This document shows positions 3,019-64,000 of a stretch of 64,000 nucleotides of DNA, in pieces; position 1 is the first letter of the stretch, and each line of letters starts with the position of its first letter. This DNA comes from Myxococcales bacterium (GTDB lineage Bacteria; Myxococcota_A; Polyangia; Haliangiales; Haliangiaceae). Below the pieces are notes generated by a model. The model saw only the letters and a list, made by a program, of their open reading frames with translations, ran no database searches and had not been told where the DNA came from. The stretch covers positions 1 to 64,000 of the forward strand of contig JAQBQE010000032.1 of assembly GCA_028287135.1 (NCBI GenBank), given 5' to 3'. Position numbers and translations under genes: made by a program.

Positions 3019-3366
3019 CTAGAGCTGTACAAGCACCGCGATGGCGACCGCGGCGAGCACGAGCCCGATCACGAGCCAGAGCGCACCCCGTCCTGCCGGA
3101 GCCGGGGGGCGTCGGGCGGAGACCCGGGGTACTTCGACGTCCTCTGCGGCGGGTTGGGTCGCAGCGGGCGAGACCTCGACCGGTGGAGCGCTTGCTCCGT
3201 CGACCGACACTTCGATCTCCGGCTCGGACGCGGCACCGGCGACCTCGTGAATGAGTCGCGCGAGATCGAGCGGGGCCATGGCCTCCGTGGGGCGAGCGGC
3301 TTCATACGGCGCAAGATCGCCGTCATTTGCGGTCGTTGCCTCATCGCGGGGGGTACGGCCGGCCAT
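3019..3366 (-). CDS. Hypothetical tail-anchored protein (115 aa)
   Basis: A short acidic, Ala/Pro-rich protein that ends in a single hydrophobic helix (LWLVIGLVLAAVAIAVLVQL) at the extreme C-terminus, preceded by basic residues (RRPPAPAGR). This layout suggests a tail-anchored inner-membrane protein with a cytoplasmic N-terminal region. The function is unknown. The start is ATG 3366 rather than the upstream in-frame 3393 codon, because TACGCT lies 8 nt before it, matching the leaderless pattern seen at many genes here. It lies downstream of cysK on the same strand. Confidence 0.6.
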   Translation of the reverse strand: MAGRTPRDEATTANDGDLAPYEAARPTEAMAPLDLARLIHEVAGAASEPEIEVSVDGASAPPVEVSPAATQPAAEDVEVPRVSARRPPAPAGRGALWLVIGLVLAAVAIAVLVQL

Positions 3367-3374
3367 GGCGTTCG

Positions 3375-3380
3375 AGCGTA
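3375..3380 (-). promoter_or_regulatory. TANNNT -10-like element before the tail-anchored protein gene
   Basis: TACGCT on the minus strand lies 8 nt upstream of ATG 3366. It belongs to the window-wide set of TANNNT motifs that sit 5-9 nt before start codons. No clear -35 element is visible. Confidence 0.4.
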
Positions 3381-3432
3381 CCGCAACGCTCATCGCGCGC
3401 GACCGACGGCGCCGCTGCGAAATGCGCCAGGC

Positions 3433-4374
3433 CTACAGCTCGGCGTCGGAGTCCTTGTTGACGCCCTCGAACAGCGGCGTCGACAGGTAGCGCTCGCCGG
3501 TATCGGGGAGCATCGCGAGGATGACGCTGCCCGCGGGCGCTGACTTCGCGACCTGGAGCGCGGCGGCGAACGTCGCGCCCGACGAGATGCCGACGAACAG
3601 ACCTTCGCGCTGCGCGAGCGCGCGAGCGGTGGCGATCGAATCGGCGTCTTCGACCGCGAGCCGGTCGTCGAACACGGTGCGATCGAGGACGGCCGGGACG
3701 AAGTCCGGGGTCCAGCCCTGGACCTTGTGCGGCTTGAACTCGGCACCGCCGAGCAGCTGCGCGGCGGCCGGCTCGCACACGACGATCTTGATGTCGGGGC
3801 GCGCGACCTTGAGGACCTGGCCCGCGCCGGTCAGCGTGCCGCCCGTGCCCCAGCCGGTGACGAAGTAATCGAGCCGCTTGCCCGCGAAGTCCTCGAGGAT
3901 CTCGGGACCGGTGGTCTGCCGGTGATAGGCGGGGTTCGCCTCGTTCTCGAACTGGCGGGCGAGGAACCAGCCGTTCTTTTCGGCGAGCTCCTTGGCCTTG
4001 CGCACCATGCCGCTGCCGCGCTCGGCACCCGGCGTCAAGATCACCCTCGCGCCGTACGCGCGCATGATCATCCGGCGCTCCTGCGAGAACGTCTCCGCCA
4101 TCGTCGCGACGAACGGATAGCCCCGCGCAGCACACACCATCGCGAGCGCGATGCCGGTGTTGCCCGACGTCGCTTCGACCACGGTCTGCCCGGGCTTGAG
4201 CGCACCGCTGCGCTCCGCGTCGAGGATGATGCCGAGGGCGAGGCGATCCTTGACTGACCCGCCCGGGTTGAAGGATTCGACCTTCACGTACATCGTGACG
4301 TTGGCGGGCGCGAGCTGGTTGATACGCACGATCGGGGTGCGGCCGATCAGCTGCGTGATGTTGTCGTAGATCAT
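3433..4374 (-). CDS. cysK: Cysteine synthase (O-acetylserine sulfhydrylase)
   Basis: A 313-residue PLP enzyme of the normal family length. It makes L-cysteine from O-acetylserine and sulfide in the cytoplasm. The PLP-binding lysine is K42 in NPGGSVKDR. The substrate-binding loop SGNTG is at residues 70-74, and the glycine-rich phosphate loop GWGTGGT is near residues 175-181. The C-terminal SSGA motif that contacts the cofactor is present. No N-terminal haem-binding or C-terminal CBS domain is present, so it is not cystathionine beta-synthase. It starts at ATG 4374. No serine acetyltransferase gene (cysE) is adjacent. Confidence 0.93.
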   Translation of the reverse strand: MIYDNITQLIGRTPIVRINQLAPANVTMYVKVESFNPGGSVKDRLALGIILDAERSGALKPGQTVVEATSGNTGIALAMVCAARGYPFVATMAETFSQERRMIMRAYGARVILTPGAERGSGMVRKAKELAEKNGWFLARQFENEANPAYHRQTTGPEILEDFAGKRLDYFVTGWGTGGTLTGAGQVLKVARPDIKIVVCEPAAAQLLGGAEFKPHKVQGWTPDFVPAVLDRTVFDDRLAVEDADSIATARALAQREGLFVGISSGATFAAALQVAKSAPAGSVILAMLPDTGERYLSTPLFEGVNKDSDAEL

Positions 4375-4458
4375 GCAGCAACCATCGCACGAGTGCCGAC
4401 GGCTCGCGTCAGATCGTACCGCTCGCGGTGGTCACTCCCGCGTGGGATATCAAACGGC

Positions 4459-4953: not shown

Positions 4954-5074
4954 CGATCACGGAGACTCGGGCACCCGCGACGTCGCCCCCGTTCACACCA
5001 TGGCCGCGCGGGCGATAGGTTCGGCCGCAGGCAATCAGAACTGCCATTCTGCGGGCCTCGTGCGTTTCTCGAAC

Positions 5075-5506: not shown

Positions 5507-5521
5507 CGTATCGTCGACCGC

Positions 5522-5989
5522 GTGAAGGCCGCCTGGATCGTGTTCGTCGCCGCCTGTGGCGGTTCTCCCCCGCCCGCACCGCCCACCAACGCGGGTGGAT
5601 CTGCATCGGTGACGCCGCCCGATCTCGCCGGCATTCGCGCCGCGCTCGCGCCGCATACCGGCCTTCGCTTCGACGCAACCTCGACGACGGAGCGCGGCTG
5701 CCCGACCGATCAAACCCTCGGCGAGTACCTCGCGATGCTCGTGCAGAACACCACGCCCGAGCCCGGTTCGCAGGACGAGTACCGCCTGACCGGAACCTGC
5801 GGCGAGTTCCCGACCGAGCTCGCGCCGATCGATCCGCCCGCAGATCCTGCCTACTGGTACTGCCGGATCGACGCGTACACGCTCGATGCCGAGTCCGGAG
5901 ATCCGTGGCACTACGAGCTGCGCCTGCGGATCCGCAAGACCGACGGCGCGCCGGACCTCACGACGTTCGGCTGCCCGGGAACGCCCTGA
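5522..5989 (+). CDS. Putative lipoprotein (155 aa)
   Basis: A GTG-started protein with a very short signal (MKAAWIVFVAACGGS) and lipobox VAAC, followed by a Pro/Ala/Gly-rich linker. The mature domain has cysteines at GCPTDQ, GTCGE, YWYCR and GCPG that could pair as two disulfides. Its family is unknown. TATCGT lies 7 nt before GTG 5522, consistent with near-leaderless expression, although the preceding lipoprotein gene ends only 15 nt upstream. It converges with the copper-monooxygenase-like gene, with only a few bases between the stop codons. Confidence 0.65.
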   Translation: MKAAWIVFVAACGGSPPPAPPTNAGGSASVTPPDLAGIRAALAPHTGLRFDATSTTERGCPTDQTLGEYLAMLVQNTTPEPGSQDEYRLTGTCGEFPTELAPIDPPADPAYWYCRIDAYTLDAESGDPWHYELRLRIRKTDGAPDLTTFGCPGTP

Positions 5990-5992
5990 CGT

Positions 5993-6961: not shown

Positions 6962-7071
6962 CGGCGCATCATCTGCGATCTGCCGGCGCCGGTCGAGAGT
7001 CTACTTCAGCGCCGGTATCCCGAATGGTTCCCCCACGTTGCTACCTGTGCCGGGGGGGCACGATCCGCGAG

Positions 7072-8527: not shown

Positions 8528-8859
8528 CTCCGAAAATGTGCCGAGCCCCGACGGGGTAGGTCAGGGGCCCGGCCGCCCGCTGCACACGGGCGTAGACGAT
8601 CCGTAGAAAAGCAAACGCCGTACCCGATGCGGATGCGGCTGCTACCGAGGGTGGTTGTCGCGCGCGCTGCCGCGAGCGCGGATTCCATCGAGCCCCGGCC
8701 GCCGCACGAGACCGCCGCGCGCGGCACGCATCGCGCACATCGGCACAGTGCGCGCTGATGCGTCACCACGACCGGGTAGTCGAATCTCCGTGTCAGAAAG
8801 GCAGCTTGAAGCCCGCTTCAGTACCCCGCCTCGGGGACGGGGCGTACCATCAGGCCGCT
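8528..8859 (+). other. Non-coding stretch between purU and the next gene
   Basis: About 330 nt without a convincing gene. Just after purU there is a short GC hairpin (CCCCGACGGGG) without a T tract. Open frames here on either strand are short and Arg-rich. If the downstream gene instead starts at ATG 8758, the gap shrinks to 230 nt. Confidence 0.5.
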
Positions 8860-10056
8860 GTGCCTCATCGCGTCGAGACCGACATCAAGGTTCAACGTTT
8901 CGGCTTCGCGGGCGACGATCAGGGCCGCAGGCTCCTGTTCCCCCGCGCCGAGTCCCACAACATCGAGGGCCGCAGTGGTGCGGTCGGCTACGGCGTCGCC
9001 GACTGCATCTTCGACGGGCTCGAGGGTCGGCTCGATACGCTGCGCTGGACCGCCGACGCGGCGTCGCTCGGCAATGCGTGGATCCGCGACGACAACGGCC
9101 GGTTCGAGATGGCGGTCGACCGCATCGAGATGTCCCACGGGCTCATGCTGACGCGCGCCGAGAGCGGCGTCGAGCTCGTCGCCCCGCACGTCTCGCTCTC
9201 GGAGATGAAGCTGTCGGTCAAGGGACCGTTCGGCCGCGGCGCGAACGCACCGTCTCCAGCTCCGGCGCCGCTCGAGCCCGAGAAGCTGCGCCAGGACAAG
9301 TTGCGGTTCCTCGACAGCCTGTCGGGTCAGATCAACCTGACCGTCAAGGTCGTCCTCGATCTGCCGGTGATCAAGAAGCGCACGCTCGATCAGAAGCTCC
9401 AGGTTCCGGTCCAGGAAGGCAGCCTCGACTTCCGCGCCCTCGAGAACAGCCTCGACTGGCTCGAAGGCGCGTTCCTCGACATCAACCACGAGAAGGATCA
9501 CCTCGCGCTCAAGTGGAAGGTCCCGATCTTCGGCGGTGGCCGCGAGCTGGTCACGTGGAAGCTCGATGCCGAGGCCGAGACCCTCGCCTCCTTCGGTCGC
9601 GTCCCGGTGCGCTCGCTCGCCGACTACCGGTTCCGCAAGCAGCGGCCCACGCTGACCGGGATGATGCGCGATGACGACAAGCGGAAGACGCTGCAGTCGC
9701 TGACCGTCGAGGCGATCGACATCGCGCTGTCGTTGCTCGCGCCGCGCTCGCTCGAGGTCGGCGGTGGCCTGATCATGTTCGGTGGCGAGGATCAGCCCGG
9801 GATGGTCGATCTGCGGGTCACCGGCGGGATCTCGAACCACGGACCGGGCGCGCTGAGCGGTGCGATCGGCAGCGTCGACACCACGATCAAGGATCTCCGC
9901 CTCGGCCCCGTGCTGCTGACCGCGGACCGCCTCCACTTCGACGGCCTCGATCAGCTCGAGGTCACGTTCGATGGGTTCAGCCCGTCGATGGTGACCATGG
10001 TCGTGCATCGGGTCACGGCGACGAACCTCGCGATGCGGCTCGGCGGCACGCGCTGA
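8860..10056 (+). CDS. Hypothetical protein, beta-rich (about 398 aa)
   Basis: A large protein of unknown family. It consists of alternating hydrophobic/charged stretches typical of extended beta structure (for example MSHGLMLTRAESGVELVAPHVSLSEMKLSVKG), with repeated lines built around L, V and D. This is somewhat reminiscent of AsmA-like or lipid-transfer proteins, but no motif proves it. No N-terminal signal is evident. GTG 8860 is chosen because TACCAT sits 9 nt upstream and AGG 5 nt upstream. An ATG at 8758 would add 34 poorly ordered residues. It converges with fumC. Confidence 0.65.
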   Translation: MPHRVETDIKVQRFGFAGDDQGRRLLFPRAESHNIEGRSGAVGYGVADCIFDGLEGRLDTLRWTADAASLGNAWIRDDNGRFEMAVDRIEMSHGLMLTRAESGVELVAPHVSLSEMKLSVKGPFGRGANAPSPAPAPLEPEKLRQDKLRFLDSLSGQINLTVKVVLDLPVIKKRTLDQKLQVPVQEGSLDFRALENSLDWLEGAFLDINHEKDHLALKWKVPIFGGGRELVTWKLDAEAETLASFGRVPVRSLADYRFRKQRPTLTGMMRDDDKRKTLQSLTVEAIDIALSLLAPRSLEVGGGLIMFGGEDQPGMVDLRVTGGISNHGPGALSGAIGSVDTTIKDLRLGPVLLTADRLHFDGLDQLEVTFDGFSPSMVTMVVHRVTATNLAMRLGGTR

Positions 10057-19845: not shown

Positions 19846-19851
19846 AGCGTA
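19846..19851 (-). promoter_or_regulatory. TANNNT -10-like element before aroKB
   Basis: TACGCT on the minus strand lies 8 nt upstream of ATG 19837. If it is functional, aroKB can be transcribed separately from the pil genes. No -35 match is seen. Confidence 0.4.
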
Positions 19852-19883: not shown

Positions 19884-22800
19884 CTACTGACAGCCCAGGA
19901 GCCCGCGGTTCGTGATCTTCGGCGTGATGAACACGAGGATCTCGGTGCGGTCGTCGTTCTCGCGGCGGTTCTTGAAGAACCAACCGATCACGGGCAGGTC
20001 GGCGAAGAACGGGACCTTCTTGTACGCGAGGCCGGTGTTGCGGGTGTAGATGCCACCGAGGACCGAGGTCTCGCCGTCGTTGACGAGCATCGACGTCTTG
20101 GCTTCCTTGCGGAGAATCGACGGGTCACCACGTGCGCCGACGTTGACGAAGTCCGGCTCGTTCTTCGTGACGGTCAGGTTCATCTCGATGGCGCAGTCGC
20201 GCTGCGACACCTTCGGAATCACCGTGAGCGCGAGGTCTGCCTGGACGAACTGCGTCTGCGTACCGGCGGCCGACACGACCGAGATCGGAATCGACACGCC
20301 CTGGCTGATCTTCGCCTCGCGGTTGTTGAGCACGGTGATCTTCGGCGCCGAGATGATGCGCACCGTACCGGTGTCCTCGAGGGCGGACAGCCGCAGGTTC
20401 AGGTTGAAGTTGCCGCCGAGCGAGCCGAGCGACATGCCGATCGCGCCACCTTCGCCGCCGCCCGTCGCAGCCGGCAGGTTGATGGCGAAGTCCGAGGGAG
20501 TCGCCGTCACACCGCCGCTCGGCGTGGCCGCGCTGTCGTTGCCGCCGGCGATACCGATCGACGACGGGAAGATCAAGCCGGTCGCGTTACCACCGGCCGA
20601 GCTGGCGAGCGCACGACCACCCCACTGGATGCCGAACTGGCGGAGGAACGTCGACCGCGCCTCGACGATGCGTGCTTCGATCGAGATCTGCGGCGTCTGC
20701 CGGTCGAGCTGCAGGGCGAGCCGAGCGATCTGCTCGCGGTTGCCGGCGACGTCGTTGATGATCAGCGCGTTGGTGCGCTCGTCGACCTCGATGCGGCCCT
20801 TCGGCGACAGCATCGCCTCGAGCTTGCCGCGGAGATCCGCCGACGACGCGTAGTTGAGCGGAACGATCTCGGGGCGCGGAACCTCGGACTTGATCATCGC
20901 CTCGCGACGCGCGGCCTCCGCCTCGTCCTCGGCGTCGAGCTCCTTGCGCGGAGCGATACGGAACAGGTTTCCGTCGCGGCGGTACCACAGGCCATGCGAC
21001 GCGAGGATCACCTCGAGCGCCTGGTCCCACGGAACGCGCTTGAGGCGAACGGTGACGCGGGCGTTGATGCCGTCGGGGACGACGATGTTGACCTTGCCGG
21101 TATCCGCGATCGTGCGGAGCAGGTCGTGGATCGGAGCATCCTTGAAGTCGAAGTCGACGGTCGCACCGCGATAGACCTTGCGGTTGCGCGCACCCTGCGT
21201 GCCCGCCGGGACCTGCGAGACTGACTGCGGCGCGATCGGCGTCGATGCAGCACCGAAGCCGCCGACGACCGGCGACGGAACGTTCTGCGTACGGGTCGGG
21301 CGCTTCGCGACCTGGTTGCCGACGAAGCTCCACTTCACACCGGTCGAGGTCCGGTCGAACGTCGACGTCATCGGCGCATCGAGCTCCGCGATCAGACGGA
21401 CGCGGTTCGGCGTACGCCGATCACGGAACGAGGACACCGCTCGGATCGGGCTACCGAACTTGCTGACGTCGAGCTTGCGCTCGAGCTTCGCGCCGAGCTC
21501 GGCGCCGTCGATGATCAGCTCGACGTGGGTGGCGGTGACGTCACCGATCGTGATCGCGCCCTCCCCCGTCATCGCGATGTCGACGCGGGTCATCGAGTCG
21601 TCGCTCTTGAACGTGATGTCCTTGACGAACGCTGCCTTGATGGCGGGCTTCGCGGCGACCGTGACCACCGGCGCGGCCGGCGTCATCGGGACCGCGGCCA
21701 CCTTCACGGCGTCCGCCTTCTGGGCCTTGATGCGCGCGAGCTCCTGCTCCTCCACGGCGCGCTGCTGCGCGAGCGTGGACCGCCGGGACTCCTCGCGCTC
21801 GGCGGCATCGCGTGCCTGCGCCGCCGCGACCTTCAACCGGTCGGACTCGGCCTGCTGCGCGGCCACGGCCTTGCGGCGATCCGCGAGCTCGCTCTCCGCG
21901 CGCTTGCGCTGATCGGCGAGCCGGGTCGCTTCGGCGCGAGCCTTCGCGAGCTCGTCCTCGTTCGCCTTGCGCGCCTTGGCCGCGGCGACCTGCGCCTGGG
22001 CATGGGCTTCCGCCTTGCTGCGGGCCTCGAGATCCGCTGCTGCCTTCTCCGCCGCCTGGCGACGCTCCATCAGCGTCTCGAGGCTGGCTTCTGCATCGTG
22101 CTTCGCAGCGACGGCCATGCCCGCGGCCTTCTCGGCGATCGCGCGCTGTTTGTCGGCGGCGATCTTCGCGGCCTGGGCCTCGCGGGCGGCGCTCTCGGCC
22201 GCCTTGCGCTGCATCTCGGCCGCGATCCGCTGGTGCTCGGCCTCGGTGCGCTGCTTGCTCGCAGCCTGCGCCGCCTGCTCGGCCTCGCTGCGCTGACGTG
22301 CCGCGAACGACGCCGCGGTCTCCGCCTCGGTCCGACGGCGCGCTGCATCGCTGGCAGCGGCCTCCGCCTCACCACGCTTGCGGGCTGCTTCGCCCGCGGC
22401 CTTCTCGGCCGACGCGCGCTGCTGCTCGACGGTGAGCAGCGCGAACCGCGTCTGCTCGAGATCCTTCTTCGCACCCGACGCCGCGGTCTCGGCCGCCACC
22501 CGGCGCATCTCGGCTTCATCGGCCGCGTGCTTCGCCCTGGCGAGCCGGTCCTCGGCCACCTTCGCCTCGGCGATCAACTTCTCGCGATCGGTCGCAACCT
22601 GGCTCGACGACCGGTCACGGGCGAGCGCGGCCTGCTTCGCAGCAGCCTCCGCCGCCTCGCGCTCACGGGTCGCACGCGCCACGGTCTCGCGGGCCGCTTC
22701 CTCGCGGGCCTGCGCCGCAGCGTGTGCCGCGCGCGCCTTGTCCTCGAGCGACTGGACCTGGAGCGTCTTCTTGTCGAGCGTCGCGAGCTGCGTCTTTGCA

Positions 22801-24245
22801 TCCTTGAGCATCTTCGAGGCTTCGGTCCGCGACGCCTCCGCGCGCTGCTTGTCGGCTTCGGCCTGGCGCTTGTCCGCCGCCGCCGCCATCTTCGCCGCCT
22901 CGGCCTCGGCACGCGCCGCCTTGGCCTCGGTGCGAGCGCGCGCCGCATCCGCCTTCGCTGCGTCCGCCTCGCTCTGCGCGCGCGCCGCCATGGCGGTGCT
23001 CTTCGCGATGTCGTCCTTGGCCTTCGCCGCCTCGACGCGAGCGGTCTCCGCTTCCATCCGCTTCTGCGCGACGTCGCGCCGCGCCTGCTCGGCCTCGATC
23101 CGCGCCGACTCCGCTTCGGCCTTGGTCCGTGCTGCATCCGCGCGCGCCGCGTCGGCTTCTGCCCGGGCGCGGGTCGCTGCATCCTTGGTGGTCGCGGCTT
23201 CGCGACGCGCGACCTCGGCATCCTTGCGAGCCGCTTCCGCCTCGGCCTTCGCGCGATTCGCCGCGTCGAGGTCCTTCATCGCACCAGCGCGGGTCTTCGC
23301 CATCGCGGCGTCGGCCTCGGCCTTGGTGCGGGCTGCGTCCTGCTGCGCCGCGAGCACGTCCTGCTTCGCGACCGCAGCTTCCTTGCGTGCACGGTCGGTC
23401 TCGGCCAGCGCGTCACGCTTGGCCTGCTCCGCCGCCATCCGCATCCGCTGCGCATCGGTCTCGGCGCGAGCCACCTGCAGCTTGGCCTTCGCGGCTTCGT
23501 CCTGGGCGCGGGTCGCCTGGAGCTTGGCCTTCGCGGCCTCGTCCCTGGCGGCTGCGGCGAGGGTCTTCGCGCGCTCGATATCCGCCGAGCTCGCCTGCTG
23601 ACCGGCGCGCTTGGCGTCCTCCGCGGCGCGCTGCGCTGCATCGGCGCGCGCCATCTGATCGGCTGCCGCCTTGCGGAGCCGCTCGGCCTCGGCCTGCGCC
23701 GCGGCACTGACCTTCTCGGCCTGCGCCCGCGCCTGCTCGGCGGTGGCCGCAGCGCGCCTGGCCTGCTCGCTCTCCGACTGCGCCTTGGCGAGCGCCTCCG
23801 GGCTGGCGTTCCTCGGGGCCGCGTCCCGCGCGGTCACCATGACGACGACCTCGTTGCCGTCGGTCTTGACGTCGTAGCGACCGGGTCGCGCCAGCGTGAC
23901 GATCACGCGGACGACCTGACCGCCGTCGTCGATCTGCTGGGCAGCGATCGTGCTCACCGCCCAGGTACTCGGTGTGTAGACACTTGCGCCTTCATGGCCG
24001 CGGAGGGCCTCGGCGAGCCGCGCTTGCGGCACGTCGATGACGACGCGACTAGGTCGCTCGAGCTTGTACACGGTGAATGTCGGCGTCTGCGCGCCGCGCA
24101 CGTGTACGCGTGTCATCCCTCCTTCTTCTTCGAAGGTGACGGCGCGGATCTCGTTCTTGCCGTCGGCACGCGCCGGCTGAGCGTTGAGCGCGACGACGAC
24201 AACGGCGAGTGAAGCGATCCAGATCTTGGGATGGGTCATGTGCAT
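19884..24245 (-). CDS. pilQ: Type IV pilus secretin PilQ with giant coiled-coil insertion
   Basis: PilQ forms the outer-membrane secretin through which type IV pili pass. This copy is 1453 residues, far longer than usual PilQ proteins. Domains in order: a signal peptide (to ~28, ending QPARADG); AMIN 1 (about 30-140); about 700 residues of Ala/Glu/Lys/Arg heptad-like sequence with hardly any Pro or Gly (148-845); AMIN 2 (about 870-985); the secretin N0 domain (DFDFKDAPIHDLLRTIADT, ~1025-1100); an N1 domain; and the secretin core (VPFFADLPVIGWFFK). It starts at ATG 24245 with a GAGGAG Shine-Dalgarno sequence 5 nt upstream. The AMIN domains are expected to bind peptidoglycan. The coil is discussed as a finding. 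Confidence 0.93.
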   Translation of the reverse strand: MHMTHPKIWIASLAVVVVALNAQPARADGKNEIRAVTFEEEGGMTRVHVRGAQTPTFTVYKLERPSRVVIDVPQARLAEALRGHEGASVYTPSTWAVSTIAAQQIDDGGQVVRVIVTLARPGRYDVKTDGNEVVVMVTARDAAPRNASPEALAKAQSESEQARRAAATAEQARAQAEKVSAAAQAEAERLRKAAADQMARADAAQRAAEDAKRAGQQASSADIERAKTLAAAARDEAAKAKLQATRAQDEAAKAKLQVARAETDAQRMRMAAEQAKRDALAETDRARKEAAVAKQDVLAAQQDAARTKAEADAAMAKTRAGAMKDLDAANRAKAEAEAARKDAEVARREAATTKDAATRARAEADAARADAARTKAEAESARIEAEQARRDVAQKRMEAETARVEAAKAKDDIAKSTAMAARAQSEADAAKADAARARTEAKAARAEAEAAKMAAAADKRQAEADKQRAEASRTEASKMLKDAKTQLATLDKKTLQVQSLEDKARAAHAAAQAREEAARETVARATREREAAEAAAKQAALARDRSSSQVATDREKLIAEAKVAEDRLARAKHAADEAEMRRVAAETAASGAKKDLEQTRFALLTVEQQRASAEKAAGEAARKRGEAEAAASDAARRRTEAETAASFAARQRSEAEQAAQAASKQRTEAEHQRIAAEMQRKAAESAAREAQAAKIAADKQRAIAEKAAGMAVAAKHDAEASLETLMERRQAAEKAAADLEARSKAEAHAQAQVAAAKARKANEDELAKARAEATRLADQRKRAESELADRRKAVAAQQAESDRLKVAAAQARDAAEREESRRSTLAQQRAVEEQELARIKAQKADAVKVAAVPMTPAAPVVTVAAKPAIKAAFVKDITFKSDDSMTRVDIAMTGEGAITIGDVTATHVELIIDGAELGAKLERKLDVSKFGSPIRAVSSFRDRRTPNRVRLIAELDAPMTSTFDRTSTGVKWSFVGNQVAKRPTRTQNVPSPVVGGFGAASTPIAPQSVSQVPAGTQGARNRKVYRGATVDFDFKDAPIHDLLRTIADTGKVNIVVPDGINARVTVRLKRVPWDQALEVILASHGLWYRRDGNLFRIAPRKELDAEDEAEAARREAMIKSEVPRPEIVPLNYASSADLRGKLEAMLSPKGRIEVDERTNALIINDVAGNREQIARLALQLDRQTPQISIEARIVEARSTFLRQFGIQWGGRALASSAGGNATGLIFPSSIGIAGGNDSAATPSGGVTATPSDFAINLPAATGGGEGGAIGMSLGSLGGNFNLNLRLSALEDTGTVRIISAPKITVLNNREAKISQGVSIPISVVSAAGTQTQFVQADLALTVIPKVSQRDCAIEMNLTVTKNEPDFVNVGARGDPSILRKEAKTSMLVNDGETSVLGGIYTRNTGLAYKKVPFFADLPVIGWFFKNRRENDDRTEILVFITPKITNRGLLGCQ

Positions 24246-29112: not shown

Positions 29113-29118
29113 ACGCTA
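29113..29118 (-). promoter_or_regulatory. TANNNT -10-like element before the sigma-54 activator gene
   Basis: TAGCGT on the minus strand lies 8 nt upstream of GTG 29104, consistent with near-leaderless initiation and with the chosen start. Confidence 0.35.
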
Positions 29119-33881: not shown

Positions 33882-33887
33882 AGTCTA
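33882..33887 (-). promoter_or_regulatory. TANNNT -10-like element before the Uma2 gene
   Basis: TAGACT on the minus strand lies 6 nt before ATG 33875. There is no Shine-Dalgarno sequence in between, so the mRNA is probably leaderless. Confidence 0.4.
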
Positions 33888-33959
33888 CCAGACGCGTCGT
33901 GACGCCATTCGCCGCGTGGCAGCGTCGAGGAATAGGGGTTGTGATAGGGTGCGCGCGTC

Positions 33960-35089
<1,130 letters not shown>

Positions 35090-43767: not shown

Positions 43768-43773
43768 AGCCTA
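43768..43773 (-). promoter_or_regulatory. TANNNT -10-like element before the 43759 gene
   Basis: TAGGCT on the minus strand lies 8 nt before ATG 43759. The same hexamer occurs before the gene at 63471. Confidence 0.35.
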
Positions 43774-46846: not shown

Positions 46847-46893
46847 TCGCCACGGTAACACGGGCTGAAGACCCGTTGACGTCGGCCCGCGGC

Positions 46894-47655
46894 TCAGAGA
46901 TCGCGCATGTACTCGCAGCGCGGCGCTTCGATATGCGGCGTGATCCAGCTGACACCGAGCAGCTGGTCGAGGAGGAACCGGAAGTTGCCGTACGTCACGA
47001 CGAAGAAGTCCATCTTGCGCTTCTTGATGCCACCGCCGGTGTCATCCGCGCGGACGCAGCCATCGTGGATCGAACCGTCCGGCAGCTGCAGGCCGTCGAA
47101 CTCGGGGATGTACAGCGGCTCGCCGATCGCGATCACGGTCTTGTCGACGGCGACCGACTTGAACGGGATCAGTGGCCGCTGACCGGCACCGCGTCCGAAC
47201 GGATGGTTCGCGATGTTGAGCTGCTCGAAGCACGTGCCGTAGCCGTACTTGCACGCGCCTTTGTAGTTGATGACCCGGCCATCCATCATCAGGCCCGAGC
47301 CCTCCATGCGCAGCGACCACGCGAAGCGCTCGCGCACGCGGCCGAAGAACAGACCATCCGAGGTGTAGAGCTCGACCCACGTGTGATCGGGGACCTTCGC
47401 ATTGCGACCGGACTTGGGGACCGTGCTCGTGCGCGCGTCCTGGTAATCCTCCTCGAGGGCGAGCCAGTAGAACCGCAGCGCCCAGCCGCTGTCCTTCACG
47501 AGCGGGTAGCCGCAGCACAGCTTGTTCTTGCCGCGCAGGTTCATCCGCGGCTGCAGCGGGACGTCTTCCTTCGCGAGCTTGCTGTCGTCGGCCCCGGCAT
47601 CCGCACCGAGCACGGCGAGGATCCCGACGACGAACAGGCTGACGGCGCGTCGCAC
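46894..47655 (-). CDS. Exported 3D-domain protein
   Basis: A 253-residue protein with a signal peptide (RRAVSLFVVGILAVLGADAGA). The C-terminal part has the 3D (three-aspartate) domain pattern seen in MltA and Rpf/YabE-like cell-wall enzymes: GCVRADDTGGGIKKRKMDFFV, preceded by AIGEPLYIPEFDGLQLPDG. A role in peptidoglycan cleavage is likely. An N-terminal stretch with paired cysteines (NKLCCGYP) is extra. GTG 47655 is preferred because TACGAT lies 6 nt upstream and the signal then begins with basic residues. ATG 47691 and 47736 are possible longer starts that would overlap the divergent gene. Confidence 0.78.
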   Translation of the reverse strand: MRRAVSLFVVGILAVLGADAGADDSKLAKEDVPLQPRMNLRGKNKLCCGYPLVKDSGWALRFYWLALEEDYQDARTSTVPKSGRNAKVPDHTWVELYTSDGLFFGRVRERFAWSLRMEGSGLMMDGRVINYKGACKYGYGTCFEQLNIANHPFGRGAGQRPLIPFKSVAVDKTVIAIGEPLYIPEFDGLQLPDGSIHDGCVRADDTGGGIKKRKMDFFVVTYGNFRFLLDQLLGVSWITPHIEAPRCEYMRDL

Positions 47656-47661
47656 CGCAGA

Positions 47662-47667
47662 ATCGTA
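47662..47667 (-). promoter_or_regulatory. TANNNT -10-like element before the 3D-domain gene
   Basis: TACGAT on the minus strand lies 6 nt before GTG 47655, supporting that start over the longer in-frame ATG codons. Confidence 0.35.
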
Positions 47668-52213: not shown

Positions 52214-52219
52214 TACGCT
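52214..52219 (+). promoter_or_regulatory. TANNNT -10-like element before the TonB-domain receptor gene
   Basis: TACGCT lies 6 nt before ATG 52226, and no ribosome-binding site is visible in between. Confidence 0.4.
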
Positions 52220-52225: not shown

Positions 52226-54904
52226 ATGGGTCGGTGGTACCTCGCGATCGCGCTGATCGCGATCGCGTCTGCGCCTGCGTTCGCGCAGGAAGCGCGTCCA
52301 CCCGAGGCGCCGCCACCCGCGACGCCGACCGGTGTCGTCACCCGATCGCCGAAGCTGCTGCAGGCCGTCGCGCCGGACTATCCGCCCGCCGCGCTCGCCG
52401 CCGGCAAGACGGCGCAGGTGAAGGTCCGGATCAAGATCGACGCGAGCGGCATCGTCACCGCGGTCGAGGTGATCGAGAAGGTCGGTGACGGCTTCGACGA
52501 GGCCGCGATCGCAGCGGCGATGCAGTACGTGTTCGAGCCCGCCGAGATCGATGGCAAGCCCGCGCCGATCTCGGTCGAGACGGTGATCCACTTCGTGATC
52601 GAGACGCAGGAGGAGCCCGACGAGGTTCCGCTGCCTCCGCCGTCCACCGGCCCCACGCCGCAGGAGACCGGTCCTCCGAATCACGCCGGCAATTCGCTGC
52701 TGCCGGTCACCATCGAAGGTGTCGTCGTCGAGCGCGGCACGCGGCGAAAGCTCGCCGGTGTGATCGTGTCGATCGTCGAGCTCGGGCTCGATGCCGTCAC
52801 CGGTGAGGACGGCAGCTTCTACTTTCACGGCGTCGCGCCCGGCAACTACAAGGTGCTCGCCGTCGATGCGAAGTTCGACCGGCTCGAGCGACCGATCTCG
52901 ATCGCCAAGCGCGAGAAGCTCGAGGTCCGGCTGTGGATGCGCCCGCGCGGCGGCAACCCGTACGAGACCGTCGTCGAGGGCGAGCGCGAGGTCCTCGAGG
53001 TCACGCGCCGCACGTTGCAGCGCCAGCAGCTGACCAGCATCCCCGGCACGTTCGGCGATCCGATCCGCGTGATCCAGACGCTGCCCGGCATGAACCGCGC
53101 GCCGTTCGGGCTCGGCCTGTTGCTCGTTCGCGGCTCGAACCCCGACGACACCGGCATCTACGTCGATGGTCACGAGGTCCCCGCGCTGTTCCACTTCCTC
53201 GGCGGCCCCTCGATCTTCAACGTCGAGATGCTCGAGTCGATCGATCTGTACCCCGGCGGATTCCCGGCCCGGTTCGGTCGCAAGCACGGTGGCGCCGTCG
53301 CCCTCGAGCTGCGGCCGACCAAGTCCGACGGCGTGCACGGCGCCGCGAAGGTCGACTTCATCGACGCCGGCGGCTACGTCCGCGCACCGATCACCAAGGA
53401 CGTGTCGTTCGCGTTCGCAGGTCGCCGCTCGTACATCGATGCGTTCCTCGGATTCGTGCTTCCCGCGCCGCCCGCGGGTGGCCAGCGGATCGTGACCCCG
53501 ATCTATTACGACTACGCGGGGCGCCTCGACTGGAACCTCAAGAAGGAAGGCCGGCTCAGCCTGTTCGCGATCGGCTCGTCGGACACGCTCCACGTGCTCG
53601 ATCAGGATCCGGAATCGCCGGTGTCGACCGACCTCGATACCTCGGTGAAGTTCTTCCGCGTGATCGCGACCTACGCGCGCTCGCTCGGTGGTGACCTCAA
53701 GCTATCGGTGTCGCCCGCGTGGGGCCGCGACAGCCTGACGTTCACCGGCGCCCAGGCCGAGGCGGCCGGCCCGTTCACGAGCGTCGGCATCATCAACAAC
53801 TCGCTGTCGTATCGCGCACGTGTCACCGGCCGGCTGACCAAGCACCTCGTGCTCGACACCGGGATCGACGTGCTGTCGCGGGTCACGACCTACGACGCGC
53901 TGGTGCCGCTCGACGACAACCTGATCAACGCTGGCGGCGTCGACATCCCGCCGTCGAAGGTGTTGCGTGGTGCGCAGACCCTTGGCATCGGTGGCTACAT
54001 CGATCTCGGCATCGATGTCAGCAAGCGCCTGAAGATGATCCCGAGCCTGCGGCTCGACTCGTACATCATCGATGGCCAGGACCGCGCATCCGCGGATCCC
54101 CGCCTGGTCGCGCGCTATCAGGTCTCGCCGACACTGACCGGCAAGGCCTACATCGGCGAGTTCAGCCAGCCACCGCAGCCCGAGGCGATCGACCGCCGGT
54201 TCGGAAATCCCAACGTCGGGATCGAGCACGCGACGCACATGGGCCTCGGTTACGAGTGGAAGCCCGACCGGTTGTGGACGATCGATAGCGAGATCTACTG
54301 GGCGCGCCGTCGCGACCTCGTCGTGTTCACGAACGAGATCGTGATGAACGACGACGGTACGTTCTCGAGCACGAACTTCAACAACGACGGACGTCGCGAC
54401 TCGTACGGGCTCGAGATGTTGATCAAGCGCGAGATCAGCGAGCACGCGTTCGGCTGGCTGTCGTACACGTTCAGCCGCGCTCGCCAGCGCAACCAGCTCG
54501 GCAACCCGTTCGTCCCGACGAGCTTCGACCAGCCGCATGTGCTCAACGCGGTCGGTAGCTGGAAGCCGGGCAAGGGCTTCGAGCTCGGCGCGCGATTCCA
54601 GCTCGCGAGCGGCCGCCCTGACACCCCGGTGATCGGCGCCACGTACGACGCGGACTCCGGCAGCTATGTCCCGCTCAGCGGCGAGCGGCGCTCGATCCGG
54701 ACGTCGTACTTCCGCCAGCTCGATGTTCGCGCCGAGAAGGTCTGGCTCTACGACACGTGGAGCCTCGGCCTGTACCTCGACATCATCAACGTGACCAACG
54801 CGGAGAACGTCGAGGCGATCCAGTACGACTATCGCTACCGCGAGTCGGCACCGGTCACCGGGTTCCCGATCTTGCCGACGCTCGGCCTGCGAGGGACGTG
54901 GTGA
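52226..54904 (+). CDS. TonB-dependent receptor with fused TonB C-terminal domain
   Basis: An 892-residue outer-membrane transporter with an unusual start. After a signal peptide (to ~21) come residues ~40-130 with the full TonB C-terminal-domain pattern (DYPPAALAAGKTAQVKVRIK, GFDEAAIAAAMQYVFEPAEI). A Pro-rich linker follows, then a CarboxypepD_reg-like beta domain (IEGVVVERGTRRKLAGVIVS, ~165-240), a plug (LLLVRGSNPDDTGIYVDGHE, ~250-375) and the 22-strand-type barrel ending in an aromatic residue (LGLRGTW). TonB domains normally sit in inner-membrane energisers. The stop overlaps the next lipoprotein start (GTGA). Confidence 0.88.
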   Translation: MGRWYLAIALIAIASAPAFAQEARPPEAPPPATPTGVVTRSPKLLQAVAPDYPPAALAAGKTAQVKVRIKIDASGIVTAVEVIEKVGDGFDEAAIAAAMQYVFEPAEIDGKPAPISVETVIHFVIETQEEPDEVPLPPPSTGPTPQETGPPNHAGNSLLPVTIEGVVVERGTRRKLAGVIVSIVELGLDAVTGEDGSFYFHGVAPGNYKVLAVDAKFDRLERPISIAKREKLEVRLWMRPRGGNPYETVVEGEREVLEVTRRTLQRQQLTSIPGTFGDPIRVIQTLPGMNRAPFGLGLLLVRGSNPDDTGIYVDGHEVPALFHFLGGPSIFNVEMLESIDLYPGGFPARFGRKHGGAVALELRPTKSDGVHGAAKVDFIDAGGYVRAPITKDVSFAFAGRRSYIDAFLGFVLPAPPAGGQRIVTPIYYDYAGRLDWNLKKEGRLSLFAIGSSDTLHVLDQDPESPVSTDLDTSVKFFRVIATYARSLGGDLKLSVSPAWGRDSLTFTGAQAEAAGPFTSVGIINNSLSYRARVTGRLTKHLVLDTGIDVLSRVTTYDALVPLDDNLINAGGVDIPPSKVLRGAQTLGIGGYIDLGIDVSKRLKMIPSLRLDSYIIDGQDRASADPRLVARYQVSPTLTGKAYIGEFSQPPQPEAIDRRFGNPNVGIEHATHMGLGYEWKPDRLWTIDSEIYWARRRDLVVFTNEIVMNDDGTFSSTNFNNDGRRDSYGLEMLIKREISEHAFGWLSYTFSRARQRNQLGNPFVPTSFDQPHVLNAVGSWKPGKGFELGARFQLASGRPDTPVIGATYDADSGSYVPLSGERRSIRTSYFRQLDVRAEKVWLYDTWSLGLYLDIINVTNAENVEAIQYDYRYRESAPVTGFPILPTLGLRGTW

Positions 54905-56899: not shown

Positions 56900-57319
56900 T
56901 CAGCTACAGGCGTCGCACAGGCCACGAACGTGGACCTCGACCTGACGCTGGCGGATCGCGCGAGGAGCACGGGCGCGCCGCACGGTGAGCTCGAGATCGG
57001 GCAGGCACTCGACGGTGCCGCACTCGGTGCACACGAAGTGGGGATGCGCGGACTCGTGGCCGTCGGCGACCGCCTCGAACCGCCAGACGTGATCGCCGAC
57101 GTCGGTGCGGCGCGCGAGCCCGACCTCCGAGAGGTCGATCAGGTTGCGATAGATGGTCGCGCGGTCCCAGGCCTGTGACGCGAGGCGATCCGCGACGTCA
57201 CCGTGGGACATCGGAGCGCTCTCGACGCGCAGGAGCTCGAGCACGGCGATCCGGGACGGCGTGGCCCGGAGCCCGCGTGCGCGAACCGCGCTGCGCAGCG
57301 CGTCGACGTCCTTCGCCAC
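56900..57319 (-). CDS. Fur-family metal-responsive transcriptional regulator
   Basis: A 139-residue Fur/Zur/PerR-family repressor. The N-terminal winged helix is in GLRATPSRIAVLELLRVESA and DVADRLASQAWDRATIYRNL. The metal sites include HESAHPHFVCTECGTVECL, with histidines and a C-x2-C pair, and the C-terminal GLCDAC gives the second C-x2-C. Which metal or peroxide it senses is not clear. GTG 57319 has TAGAGT 7 nt upstream. It is divergent from the serine hydrolase gene and sits next to the TonB-receptor operon, which it might regulate. Confidence 0.9.
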   Translation of the reverse strand: MAKDVDALRSAVRARGLRATPSRIAVLELLRVESAPMSHGDVADRLASQAWDRATIYRNLIDLSEVGLARRTDVGDHVWRFEAVADGHESAHPHFVCTECGTVECLPDLELTVRRARAPRAIRQRQVEVHVRGLCDACS

Positions 57320-57326: not shown

Positions 57327-57349
57327 ACTCTACGCGAAGGTGATAACTT
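57327..57349. promoter_or_regulatory. Back-to-back TANNNT elements between fur-like and serine hydrolase genes
   Basis: In a 37-nt divergent gap, TAGAGT (minus strand, 57332-57327) lies 7 nt before GTG 57319, and TAACTT (plus strand, 57344-57349) lies 7 nt before ATG 57357. A Fur-type regulator binding here would block both. Confidence 0.4.
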
Positions 57350-57356: not shown

Positions 57357-58631
57357 ATGTCGCTACGCGGTCGGTTCGAGACGTTGATCCGCGTGGCTGC
57401 CCCGGAAGAAGTCGCAGATCGCGGCACCGAGATCGATCCGCGCGAGGTCGGGCTCGAGCGGACGTCGATCGATTCGATCTGGCGAGCCTGCACCGCGACC
57501 TATCGCACCGGGCTCTATCCCGCGCTCGCGCTGTGCATCCGGCGGCGCGGGAAGGTCGTGTTCGATCGATCCCTCGGTCACGTCCGTGGCAACGCGCCCT
57601 ACGATCCCACGGACGCTCAGCGCGTACCCGCGACGACCAGGACGCTGTTCAACCTGTTCTCGGCGTCGAAGATGGTCACCGCGATGCTCGTGCACCTGTG
57701 CGATCAGCGCCGGTTGCTGCACCTCGACGATCCGGTCGCACGCTACCTCCCGGAGTTCGGTCAGCACGGCAAGGAACGGATCACGCTGCGCCACGTGCTC
57801 ACGCATCGCGCCGGCATCCCGAACATTCCGCCCCAGTTCGCCGACGTCGGATTGCTCGAGCGGCCGGGCGAGATCCTGACCCTGCTCGCGAACCAGAAGC
57901 CGCGGTGGCGTGCGGGCCGTCGGCTCGCGTATCACGCGCTGACCGGGGGGTTCGTGCTGGGCGCGGTGATCGAGAAGGTGACCGGCACGCCGCTGCGCGA
58001 GCTCATGCGCGACGAGGTCCTGGCGCCCCTCGGCTTTGACGCCTTCAACTTCGGCGTCCCCGCGGCGAGGCTGCCGGAGGTCGCGGTCAACGCGTTCACC
58101 GGACCGCCGGTGCTCCCGCCGCTGTCGCAGATCCTGCGCCGCACGCTGTCGGTCGACTTCGTCGAGGCGGTGCGGGTGTCCAACGATCCGCGGTTCCTGA
58201 CCTCCGTGGTGCCGGCCGGCAACATCGTGTCGACCGCGAACGAGGCGTCGCGGTTCATGCAGCTCCTCCTCGACGGCGGTGAGCTCGACGGCGTACGGGT
58301 GTTCGAGACCACCACGATCGAACGTGCGATCGCAGAGCAGACCTACTTCGAGATCGATCTGACCCTCGGTGCGCCGATCCGCTACAGCATGGGGTTCATG
58401 CTCGGCGGCCGGCTCGCGAGCCTGTACGGCCTGCGCACGCAGCGGGCGTTCGGTCACGTCGGGTTCACCAACGTGTTCGTCTATGCCGATCCGAGCCGTG
58501 ACATCGCGGTGTCGCTGATGACCAGTGGCAAGCCCGCGCTGTCACCGGGCATCACGCGGACGCTGATGATCATGCAGACGATCGCACACCACGTGCCGCG
58601 CGACGGCACGGGTCCGCTACGCCGGCACTAG
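57357..58631 (+). CDS. Serine hydrolase, class C beta-lactamase/esterase-like
   Basis: A 424-residue protein of the beta-lactamase/D-Ala-D-Ala carboxypeptidase-related family. The nucleophile motif is S102-A-S-K (LFSASKMVTAML), the second motif YHA lies in RLAYHALTGGFVLGAVI, and the third is HVG in FGHVGFTN in place of KTG. These variants are typical of EstB-like esterases rather than true antibiotic-degrading enzymes. No signal peptide is present, so it is probably cytoplasmic. ATG 57357 follows GGAGAAG and TAACTT. Confidence 0.85.
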   Translation: MSLRGRFETLIRVAAPEEVADRGTEIDPREVGLERTSIDSIWRACTATYRTGLYPALALCIRRRGKVVFDRSLGHVRGNAPYDPTDAQRVPATTRTLFNLFSASKMVTAMLVHLCDQRRLLHLDDPVARYLPEFGQHGKERITLRHVLTHRAGIPNIPPQFADVGLLERPGEILTLLANQKPRWRAGRRLAYHALTGGFVLGAVIEKVTGTPLRELMRDEVLAPLGFDAFNFGVPAARLPEVAVNAFTGPPVLPPLSQILRRTLSVDFVEAVRVSNDPRFLTSVVPAGNIVSTANEASRFMQLLLDGGELDGVRVFETTTIERAIAEQTYFEIDLTLGAPIRYSMGFMLGGRLASLYGLRTQRAFGHVGFTNVFVYADPSRDIAVSLMTSGKPALSPGITRTLMIMQTIAHHVPRDGTGPLRRH

Positions 58632-61575: not shown

Positions 61576-61632
61576 GATCACTGTACTGCATGATCGTCGG
61601 GTAGTGATTCTACACGCTTCGTGGCGCGGTGC

Positions 61633-62529: not shown

Positions 62530-63440
62530 GGAACCAGCGCCGTGTGATCCGCGAGGGTGTAGTCGACCGCGACCTCGAGGTGGAAGTGATCGTGATGCGA
62601 GACCGGATCGTTCTTCGGTGTCAGCAGTACGCGAAACCTGCCACTCGTCCCCACCACGGTCTCGACCGCGAGCAGAAGTGGATCGTTCTTCGGATAATCC
62701 TTCTCGACGACCGCTTCGCGCCCGGCCTCATCGATGAACGACACGATGTCCATCGCGATGCCGAGCGCGTGACGCGACAGGATGTTCTTGGTCTCACCGT
62801 TGACGCGAACATTGGTCCATCGGTAGATGCTGCCGAACTTGATCTCGCGAACGCCGGTCGCGTGCAGGTCGGTGCCGAGCTCGTGGAGCGCGAGGGCGAG
62901 CTGACAGTCGAGCTTGTGGGGACCCTTGCGATACGCGCTGCGGTACGTGATCCCGCCGAGCGTCATCGTCCCGTTCTCGTCGGTCACGGTGACGGCGGCG
63001 ACGATCCGGCCCTCGGTCTCCGCGGGCTTCCACGGGATGCCGGCCGCATCGAGCTTGGTCTCGCACACCTTCTCGGCTGCGAGCATCTGTTCGGTCGGTG
63101 GCCACGCATAGCCGCGCGGCATGTTGGTGACGCTGCGCAGGCTCGAGGCCGTCGGCGTGCGCGCGATCAGCGTCTTCTTCGACTTCTTTGATTTCTTCGA
63201 TTTCTTCGATTTTTTCGACTTCTTCGCGACCAGCTTGGACTTCTTGGCCGTCGACTTCTTGGCCGTCGACTTCTTGGCCGTCGCCTTCTTGGCCGTCGCC
63301 TTCTTCGGCGCCGGCGACGGCGGGGACGCGGCCGGCGTGGTGACCGGTCCATCGGTGGCTGCCGCGATCTCGGCCCTCGCCAGCGTCGGTGCGAGCGCCA
63401 CCCCCGCGGCGAGCACCAATGCGAGGAACGGCCGCGACAT
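62526..63440 (-). CDS. Extensin-like/M15-type protein with Lys-rich repeat stalk
   Basis: A 304-residue exported protein (signal to ~24, ALARAEI). Residues ~45-90 are a Lys/Ser/Ala/Thr-rich repeat (KKATAKKS, KKSKKSKK), giving a highly basic stalk. The C-terminal domain has the extensin-like/DD-peptidase zinc-site pattern: SRHALGIAMDIVSF and SHHDHFHLEVAVD. Family members probably cleave peptidoglycan peptides. The basic stalk may bind polyanions such as DNA or LPS. ATG 63440 has TAAGGT 7 nt upstream. It is translationally coupled to the M28 peptidase gene. Confidence 0.82.
   Translation of the reverse strand: MSRPFLALVLAAGVALAPTLARAEIAAATDGPVTTPAASPPSPAPKKATAKKATAKKSTAKKSTAKKSKLVAKKSKKSKKSKKSKKSKKTLIARTPTASSLRSVTNMPRGYAWPPTEQMLAAEKVCETKLDAAGIPWKPAETEGRIVAAVTVTDENGTMTLGGITYRSAYRKGPHKLDCQLALALHELGTDLHATGVREIKFGSIYRWTNVRVNGETKNILSRHALGIAMDIVSFIDEAGREAVVEKDYPKNDPLLLAVETVVGTSGRFRVLLTPKNDPVSHHDHFHLEVAVDYTLADHTALVP
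63174..63300 (-). repeat. In-frame 9-bp and 15-bp repeats encoding a Lys-rich stalk
   Basis: Four near-identical 15-bp units (TTCTTGGCCGTCGAC, 63241-63300) and about six 9-bp TTCTTCGAC-type units (63174-63226) encode KKATA/KKSTA and SKK repeats on the minus strand. Such tracts are prone to slippage length change. Confidence 0.9.
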
Positions 63441-63447
63441 CCCCTGA

Positions 63448-63464
63448 ACCTTAGCAGGTAGGCT
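63448..63464. promoter_or_regulatory. Back-to-back TANNNT elements in a 30-bp divergent gap
   Basis: TAAGGT (minus strand, 63453-63448) lies 7 nt before ATG 63440. TAGGCT (plus strand, 63459-63464) lies 6 nt before ATG 63471. The hexamers are 5 nt apart, so the two promoters would compete for polymerase. Confidence 0.45.
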
Positions 63465-63470
63465 CGCCCG

Positions 63471-64000
63471 ATGGACCTGGAACTACGTGAGGCGCTAGCC
63501 CTCGCGGAAGATCGTGATGTAGCGCTCGCACACTTGCTACCCGGTAGCGAGGACCACGATTACTTTCGCTGTCTGCGTGCGCAGCATGCGGGCGCGCTCG
63601 ACGACGCGGACGCGATCATCCACGCGTGGCCAGAGCGCCACGGCCAGACCGAGCGTTACCGGCGCCTCCAGCTGCGTCAGCTGTTGCTGCGCGTGACCGG
63701 CGACACACCGGCCCTGGCAGCCGATAACGTCCGTGACTGGTTCGGTGTCAGCCACTGGCACGAGGCCGAGGTCGAATCCATCGATCCGACGCGACCGACG
63801 CGGATCGCCGAGGGTGCGTTCGATGGTGCTCGCCTGCTCCAGCAAGCGATGGAGCACGACAGCCATCTGTCCCAGGTCACCGACGAGGGCCTGTACGAGC
63901 TGCTCGAGCGGCCTCTCGATCCACCGCGGCGGCGCGTCCTGCTCGGTCGGATCGGTCATACGCCGCAACCGGCGCTGGTCGAGCAGATCGCGCTCGATCT
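63471..64000 (+). CDS. Hypothetical protein, 3' end beyond window
   Basis: An open frame of at least 176 codons that runs off the right edge without a stop. It begins MDLELREALALAEDRDVALA and is rich in Arg, Leu, Asp and His, predicted mostly helical, with no signal peptide. There is an RLLQQAMEHDSHLSQVTD segment, but no recognised motif. ATG 63471 is supported by TAGGCT 6 nt upstream and AGGTAGG just before that. It is divergent from the extensin-like gene. Confidence 0.65.
   Translation, partial: MDLELREALALAEDRDVALAHLLPGSEDHDYFRCLRAQHAGALDDADAIIHAWPERHGQTERYRRLQLRQLLLRVTGDTPALAADNVRDWFGVSHWHEAEVESIDPTRPTRIAEGAFDGARLLQQAMEHDSHLSQVTDEGLYELLERPLDPPRRRVLLGRIGHTPQPALVEQIALD

What the first reader, a model, noticed from the sequence alone, without database searches (positions are those of the whole stretch)
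3366..63471. TANNNT hexamers 5-9 nt before many start codons suggest widespread leaderless mRNAs
Seen directly, hexamer and spacing to the start codon: TACGCT-8 (3366), TATCGT-7 (5522), TACCAT-9 (8860), TACGCT-8 (19837), TAGCGT-8 (29104), TAGACT-6 (33875), TAGGGT-9 (33960), TAGGCT-8 (43759), TACCGT-5 (46846), TACGAT-6 (47655), TACGCT-6 (52226), TAGAGT-7 (57319), TAACTT-7 (57357), TAAGGT-7 (63440) and TAGGCT-6 (63471). A sigma-70 -10 hexamer (T-12, A-11, T-7) there would start transcription near the start codon. In DNA this GC-rich, by rough estimate, TANNNT should occur at well under 1 percent of positions, so about 15 of roughly 60 genes is far above chance. Most of these starts lack a Shine-Dalgarno sequence, and most of the sites lack a clear -35. 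Caveat: some starts were chosen partly because of this pattern.
Basis: partly seen in the sequence, partly recalled or inferred. Interest (0 to 1): 0.75.

Follow-up and report, generated by a model that had tools for sequence, protein, structure and literature searches.

The report
Promoters touching start codons in myxobacterium
In this myxobacterial genome roughly one gene in six carries a promoter box directly in front of its start codon, so its messenger RNA probably begins at or next to the start codon without the usual ribosome-binding leader; this is a known type of gene start, here worked out in a little-studied lineage.

Summary
All 15 TANNNT hexamers are present at the stated places and spacings. 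The window is a myxobacterial MAG; named relatives include Kofleriaceae. With starts chosen by coding potential only, 569 kb of this genome gives 80 of 459 genes with TANNNT 6-9 nt before the start, against 7.2 ± 2.6 in shuffles. It is the top of 256 gapped patterns, with a sharp lower edge at spacing 6, which puts +1 on the start codon. TANNNT and Shine-Dalgarno genes avoid each other (3 of 80 have both, p = 8e-5). No -35 is seen; an extended -10 TG is enriched (21 of 80, expected 4.4). In orthologs T, A and T stay while neighbouring bases change: 26 of 28 for gene 33960, 14 of 16 for 8860, but 4 of 12 for 57357. The signal is strong in this family, patchy in its class, at background in some other families of the phylum. 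Best reading: sigma-70 -10 promoters giving leaderless or near-leaderless mRNAs. The kind is known, and an in silico survey already listed delta-proteobacteria (PMC3160421); this is a new member. No transcript data were available.

The parts
3375..3380 (-). TACGCT, 8 nt before ATG at 3366 (weak 115-aa ORF)
   Evidence: ORF called but not in the larger model
5509..5514 (+). TATCGT, 7 nt before GTG at 5522
   Evidence: start called independently
8845..8850 (+). TACCAT, 9 nt before GTG at 8860; conserved in orthologs with spacing 5-12
   Evidence: 14 of 16 orthologs
19846..19851 (-). TACGCT, 8 nt before ATG at 19837 (shikimate kinase + 3-dehydroquinate synthase)
   Evidence: phylum-wide orthologs 8 of 29
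29113..29118 (-). TGCTAGCGT (extended -10), 8 nt before GTG at 29104 (sigma-54 activator; start inside a longer call)
33882..33887 (-). TGGTAGACT (extended -10), 6 nt before ATG at 33875 (Uma2 family)
33945..33950 (+). TGATAGGGT (extended -10), 9 nt before GTG at 33960 (CDP-alcohol phosphatidyltransferase); best-conserved site
   Evidence: 26 of 28 orthologs
43768..43773 (-). TGCTAGGCT (extended -10), 8 nt before ATG at 43759 (alternative start 7 codons upstream of my call)
46852..46857 (-). TGTTACCGT (extended -10), 5 nt before ATG at 46846
47662..47667 (-). TACGAT, 6 nt before GTG at 47655 (alternative start 12 codons inside my call; 3D-domain protein)
52214..52219 (+). TACGCT, 6 nt before ATG at 52226
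57327..57332 (-). TAGAGT, 7 nt before GTG at 57319 (alternative start 3 codons inside my call); divergent from 57357, 37 bp between the starts
57344..57349 (+). TGATAACTT (extended -10), 7 nt before ATG at 57357 (alternative start 3 codons inside my call); the only one of the 15 with a GGAG as well
   Evidence: orthologs 4 of 12
63448..63453 (-). TGCTAAGGT (extended -10), 7 nt before ATG at 63440; divergent from 63471, 30 bp between the starts
63459..63464 (+). TAGGCT, 6 nt before ATG at 63471; T, A, T and spacing 6 kept in the 3 relatives whose sequence here could be read
   Evidence: L232, L233, L237 as printed

Best explanation
The hexamers are -10 elements of housekeeping (sigma-70 type) promoters that work without a recognisable -35, in about a quarter of cases with an extended -10 TG. 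RNA polymerase starts at, or a few bases before, the first base of the ATG/GTG, so the mRNA is leaderless or has a leader of about 0-6 nt. Translation must then begin by 5'-terminal start-codon recognition (70S-type leaderless initiation, recalled from other bacteria). Tightly packed operon-internal genes of the same genome use Shine-Dalgarno sites more often. Shown here: position, specificity, near-exclusion of Shine-Dalgarno sites, and conservation of the hexamer at some genes. Inferred: the sigma factor, the actual 5' ends and the mode of ribosome binding.
For: TANNNT at spacing 6-9: 80 of 459 against 7.2 ± 2.6 in 100 dinucleotide shuffles; seven composition-matched patterns give 9-17 of 459; top of 256 gapped patterns. 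Counts 3, 36, 15, 14, 15, 2 for spacings 5 to 10; spacing 6 puts +1 on the start codon. TA and SD nearly exclusive: 3 both, 77 TA only, 80 SD only, 299 neither, p = 8e-5. Divergent ends 39 of 158 TA, 16 SD; tandem genes under 30 bp apart 17 of 149 TA, 51 SD. Extended -10 TG 21 of 80 against 4.4 expected; TTGAC-like -35 no more than shuffled (11 of 80 with 4 of 5 bases, 9.0 expected). Ortholog footprints at the nearest start 26 of 28 (33960) and 14 of 16 (8860), control patterns 0-3. A 48.5% GC genome of the same family has 15 of 64 against 3.2 expected, control patterns 3-8.
Against: No RNA data. 299 of 459 genes have neither signal, so most starts stay unexplained, partly perhaps through wrong start calls. 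Tandem genes more than 80 bp behind another, which should mostly be first in their unit, carry TA no more often (10 of 89) than genes under 30 bp behind (17 of 149). Footprints are weaker for 57357 (4 of 12) and for 19837 across the phylum (8 of 29, controls 0-4). Ten named relatives' loci, all around one gene, show little signal (6 of 86, expected 3.2, p = 0.10). Several ortholog spacings of 10-12 for 8860 imply short leaders rather than strictly leaderless mRNA. The extended -10 TG is not general: 0 of 13 in G150 and 0 of 8 in G225 of the same class.
Confidence: 0.92

Rival explanations
1. Chance plus biased start choice: the reader picked starts that had a hexamer.
For: Seven of the 15 starts are not the ones my caller chose in the larger model.
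Against: Independent starts still give 8 of 54 in the window against 0.21 expected, or about 0.95 with the upstream rate, and 80 of 459 against 7.2; orthologs of 33960 and 8860 keep the hexamer.
Confidence: 0.02
2. The TA is the stop codon (TAA/TAG) of the upstream gene, which tends to sit just before the next start.
For: TAG/TAA begin with TA and genes are packed closely.
Against: The hexamer coincides with the upstream called stop in 3 of 80; the third base is C or T in 41 of 80; divergent ends, with no such stop, have 39 of 158.
Confidence: 0.01
3. The hexamer is a true -10, but the main mRNA starts at another promoter upstream and has a normal leader; the adjacent -10 is secondary.
For: Some genes may have several promoters; 57357 also carries GGAG.
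Against: Only 3 of 80 TA genes have a Shine-Dalgarno site, which a normal leader would often need; the window's two tightest divergent pairs leave 30 and 37 bp between starts.
Confidence: 0.05
4. The element is a translation signal or protein-binding site rather than a promoter.
For: Position relative to the start codon is tight.
Against: Pattern T-12 A-11 T-7 with TG at -15/-14 is the sigma-70 extended -10 (recalled), spacing 6 equals the -7 to +1 distance, and TANNNT is the mapped -10 motif of M. tuberculosis, where 26% of genes with a primary start site are leaderless (PMC3898074, passages read).
Confidence: 0.02

Closest known systems
Leaderless genes of Mycobacterium tuberculosis (Cortes et al. 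2013, PMC3898074; passages read)
   Same: TANNNT -10, no -35 found, 26% of genes with a primary start site leaderless, distribution reciprocal to Shine-Dalgarno genes
   Different: Actinobacteria; mapped by RNA; extended -10 TG in 7% of TANNNT promoters there, in 21 of 80 start-adjacent sites here
-10-motif adjacent to ORFs in Deinococcus-Thermus (PMC12340547; passages read)
   Same: TANNNT at fixed short distance from the ORF, beside a GGAG class
   Different: Different phylum; about 30% of ORFs there; function tested by mutation there. That paper also scanned bacteria of many phyla (its Fig. S7, which I could not see), so Myxococcota may be included
TA-led genes in delta-proteobacteria (Zheng et al. 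2011, PMC3160421; passages and one section read)
   Same: In silico TANNNT signal; 8 of 33 delta-proteobacterial genomes, mean 15.8% of genes (5.7-20.6)
   Different: The parts I read do not name the delta genomes; Myxococcus, Sorangium, Haliangium and Anaeromyxobacter do not occur in the main text; I saw no footprints of single sites there

Membership tests
Leaderless (TA-led) bacterial genes | -10-like TANNNT about 12 bp (first T) upstream of the start codon | tested here: met
   Peak at spacing 6-9, i.e. first T 12-15 bp upstream
Leaderless (TA-led) bacterial genes | No Shine-Dalgarno in these genes | tested here: met
   3 of 80 TA genes have one; 14 of 15 listed sites lack one
Leaderless (TA-led) bacterial genes | mRNA 5' end at or within a few nt of the start codon | not testable with these tools
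   No RNA data held
Extended -10, -35-independent sigma-70 promoters | TG one base before the hexamer | tested here: inconclusive
   Enriched, 21 of 80 against 4.4 expected, but 59 of 80 lack it, and it is absent in G150 (0 of 13) and G225 (0 of 8)
Extended -10, -35-independent sigma-70 promoters | No -35 hexamer | tested here: met
   TTGAC-like matches at about the shuffled level, 11 of 80 against 9.0
Bidirectional promoters with pseudo-symmetric -10 | Overlapping -10 hexamers on both strands at divergent starts | tested here: inconclusive
   Two cases in 569 kb, each with one start moved to an alternative; 3 of 19 against 2 of 73 control palindromes at close divergent gaps

The most novel reading that the evidence does not exclude
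In this family, divergent leaderless genes have shrunk to the physical minimum: two start codons 22-28 bp apart share one palindromic -10 (ANNNTANNNT), so a single RNA polymerase site, in two orientations, supplies both promoters and no leader exists on either side. Leaderless translation would be what allows such compaction.
Probability: 0.2. Interest if true: 0.6.

Novelty: new member of a known kind. Interest (0 to 1): 0.42.

Why it matters
Leaderless initiation is well mapped in Actinobacteria and Deinococcus but seems little discussed in Myxococcota. In my searches for leaderless with Myxococcus (20 of 20 papers listed), Deltaproteobacteria (3 of 3), Myxococcus xanthus and transcription start sites (15 of 231) and myxobacteria (15 of 16), no listed title or abstract start was about it; only open-licence papers are held, and apart from PMC3160421 I did not read those papers. 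The signal is strong in this family and at background in several sampled families of the same phylum, so the lineage could serve to compare how leaderless use is gained or lost. Practically, the hexamer could help to correct gene starts in such MAGs.

Tried and rejected
A search for shared palindromic -10 sites was not enriched in total (3 against 4, 1 and 9 for controls in own stretches); only their location is suggestive. Depletion of TANNNT inside coding sequence is real in this genome (0.27 sense, 0.29 antisense of synonymous shuffles), but it has a three-base periodic component and also occurs in sampled genomes without the start peak such as G110, G081 and G099, while G061 shows none, so I do not use it as evidence. 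Footprinting of 63440: 23 of 30 loci had a strong hit, 19 of these were dropped because the N-terminus did not align, 4 (one our own) were tested. Rows dropped elsewhere: one for 33960 (L053), three for 8860, two for 57357. Footprints for 52226 and 46846 could not be read because the loci were not cut; the remaining sites of the 15 were not footprinted. Stop-codon overlap and start-choice bias were tested and rejected. Genus and family pools of 4-kb loci (13 of 35, 10 of 32) are biased, as they were fetched through a leaderless gene, and are not counted as evidence. PMC6028130 is not held.
Full report
Observation. TANNNT is rare in the window, 0.08% of positions on both strands.

What organism. 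TANNNT-led leaderless genes are best known from Actinobacteria, but this window is myxobacterial. The ten loci that encode a relative of the 1453-aa protein at 19884-24245 carry the names Deltaproteobacteria (five), Kofleriaceae (three) and Myxococcales (two). G000 is a 4.84 Mb MAG in 71 contigs, 59.5% complete, with no 16S match.

Is it more than chance? I wrote a gene caller that uses only codon statistics and start-codon type, never upstream sequence. On 568,687 bases of this genome it called 465 genes, 462 with usable upstream sequence; 459 had 100 clean upstream bases. TANNNT counts at spacings 0 to 12 were 0, 2, 0, 0, 1, 3, 36, 15, 14, 15, 2, 6, 6, against about 1.6 per position further upstream. 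At spacing 6-9: 80 of 459, shuffles 7.2 ± 2.6 (maximum 15 in 100), seven composition-matched patterns 9 to 17, and first of 256 gapped three-base patterns. Allowing neighbouring starts within 4 nats of coding score: 109 of 462 against a mean of 21.1 for control patterns, an excess of 19%. In the window alone: 8 of 54 against 0.21 expected, or about 0.95 with the local upstream rate (my arithmetic).

What it looks like. The sharp lower edge at spacing 6 places +1 exactly on the start codon if the last T is -7. ATG (50 of 278) and GTG (29 of 171) starts carry it; TTG 1 of 10. TG at -15/-14 is enriched (21 of 80, expected 4.4) and a TTGAC-like -35 is not. The TG is also common in G017 (5 of 15) but absent in G150 (0 of 13) and G225 (0 of 8). 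TA and Shine-Dalgarno signals nearly exclude each other (3 both, 77 and 80 alone, 299 neither; p = 8e-5). By gene context: divergent ends 39 of 158 TA and 16 SD; tandem 30-80 bp apart 13 of 52 TA and 3 SD; tandem over 80 bp 10 of 89 TA and 13 SD; tandem under 30 bp 17 of 149 TA and 51 SD. So Shine-Dalgarno sites concentrate in tightly packed genes and TA at divergent ends, but long tandem gaps are not TA-rich, which a simple 'first genes are leaderless' rule would not predict.

Conservation of single sites. For 33960 (CDP-alcohol phosphatidyltransferase) I read the 30 loci that were cut, the best matches of 56 genomes searched. The hexamer reads TAGGGT, TAGGTT, TAGCTT, TACATT, TACAGT and so on, mostly exactly 6 nt before the start, through changes in N-terminal length (28 of 29 tested including our own, control patterns 0-3, nearest start only and our own left out: 26 of 28, none with a Shine-Dalgarno). 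For 8860: 8 of 17 including our own at spacing 5-9, 14 of 16 orthologs at spacing 5-12; two of these rows (L193, L200) are the same site. For 57357: 4 of 12 at the nearest start. For 19837 across the phylum: 8 of 29, against 0-4 for control patterns. Between 63440 and 63471, the three relatives that could be read (L232, L233, L237) keep the 63471 hexamer as TAGGCT, TATTCT and TACTCT, each 6 nt from the start codon; the 63440 hexamer is kept in two of the three (read from the output).

Distribution. In 80-kb samples (79 kb for G206): same family G017 (48.5% GC) 15 of 64, expected 3.2, though control patterns there reach 8. Nine genomes of the same class sum to 57 of 579 against about 12 expected, with f14 (13 of 70, 9 of 70) and f19 (8 of 65) strongest, and G054, G044 and G074 not significantly above background. 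Ten genomes elsewhere in the phylum sum to 31 of 604 against about 17: f23, f25, f29 and f47 at background, f28 (6 of 66) and f24 (6 of 60) modestly above, f37 and f38 no higher than their best control patterns (all; sums mine). Samples are small and starts approximate. Ten named loci around one gene gave 6 of 86 against 3.2, which does not support a uniform signal across every relative or region.

Divergent pairs. In the window the pairs 57319/57357 and 63440/63471 leave 37 and 30 bp between start codons. Elsewhere two pairs, 23 and 25 bp apart after start refinement, share a palindromic -10; in each pair one of the two starts was moved from my call (raw gaps 41 and 1 bp) to an alternative with a hexamer. 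Close divergent gaps hold 3 of 19 such palindromes against 2 of 73 control palindromes in 21 genomes. Bidirectional promoters from pseudo-symmetric sequence are known in E. coli and Salmonella plasmids (PMC12825309, PMC10268837; search listing and abstract starts only). One search for bidirectional promoters, divergent transcription and leaderless together gave one paper, on Pyrococcus.

Known or new. The kind is known: TANNNT-led leaderless genes in Actinobacteria, Deinococcus-Thermus and other groups. Zheng et al. 2011 report them in 8 of 33 delta-proteobacterial genomes, mean 15.8% (PMC3160421). [quoted passage not shown] The Deinococcus paper scanned motifs across bacteria in a supplementary figure that I could not see (PMC12340547, passages). 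My contribution is the identification in a Kofleriaceae-type MAG, the exclusion of start-choice and stop-codon artefacts, the near-exclusion of Shine-Dalgarno sites, site-level footprints and the patchy spread in the phylum. What remains undone is RNA evidence.

Noticed in passing
window 63471 to contig position about 65570 (C11; window plus L020): The ORF from 63471 has good coding score up to about 65570, then the signal moves to the frame of 65599-69627; a frameshift in the assembly or the gene is possible. Described only.
   Followed up: partly
own genome stretches C3:82521/82544 and C7 (L023):10356/10381: Divergent gene starts 23 and 25 bp apart (one start of each pair refined) with overlapping palindromic -10 hexamers, ATGCTAGCAT and ATGGTAGCAT.
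   Followed up: partly
426 coding sequences of G000 and samples of 17 relatives: TANNNT is depleted inside coding sequence on both strands (0.27 and 0.29 of synonymous-shuffle expectation in G000), also in several relatives without the start peak but not in all (G061 1.10 and 1.17); part of the effect is three-base periodic.
   Followed up: partly
window 57357: This start carries both a TANNNT and a GGAG; orthologs at the nearest start show TANNNT in 4 of 12 and Shine-Dalgarno in 1 of 12.
   Followed up: no
G017 (same family, 4.1 Mb): A member of the same family with only 48.5% GC in the 80-kb sample, against 67.6% in the sampled stretches of the window's genome, keeps the same start signal.
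   Followed up: no
own genome, tandem genes: TANNNT is as common in tandem genes 30-80 bp apart (13 of 52) as at divergent ends (39 of 158), but not in tandem genes over 80 bp apart (10 of 89).
   Followed up: no
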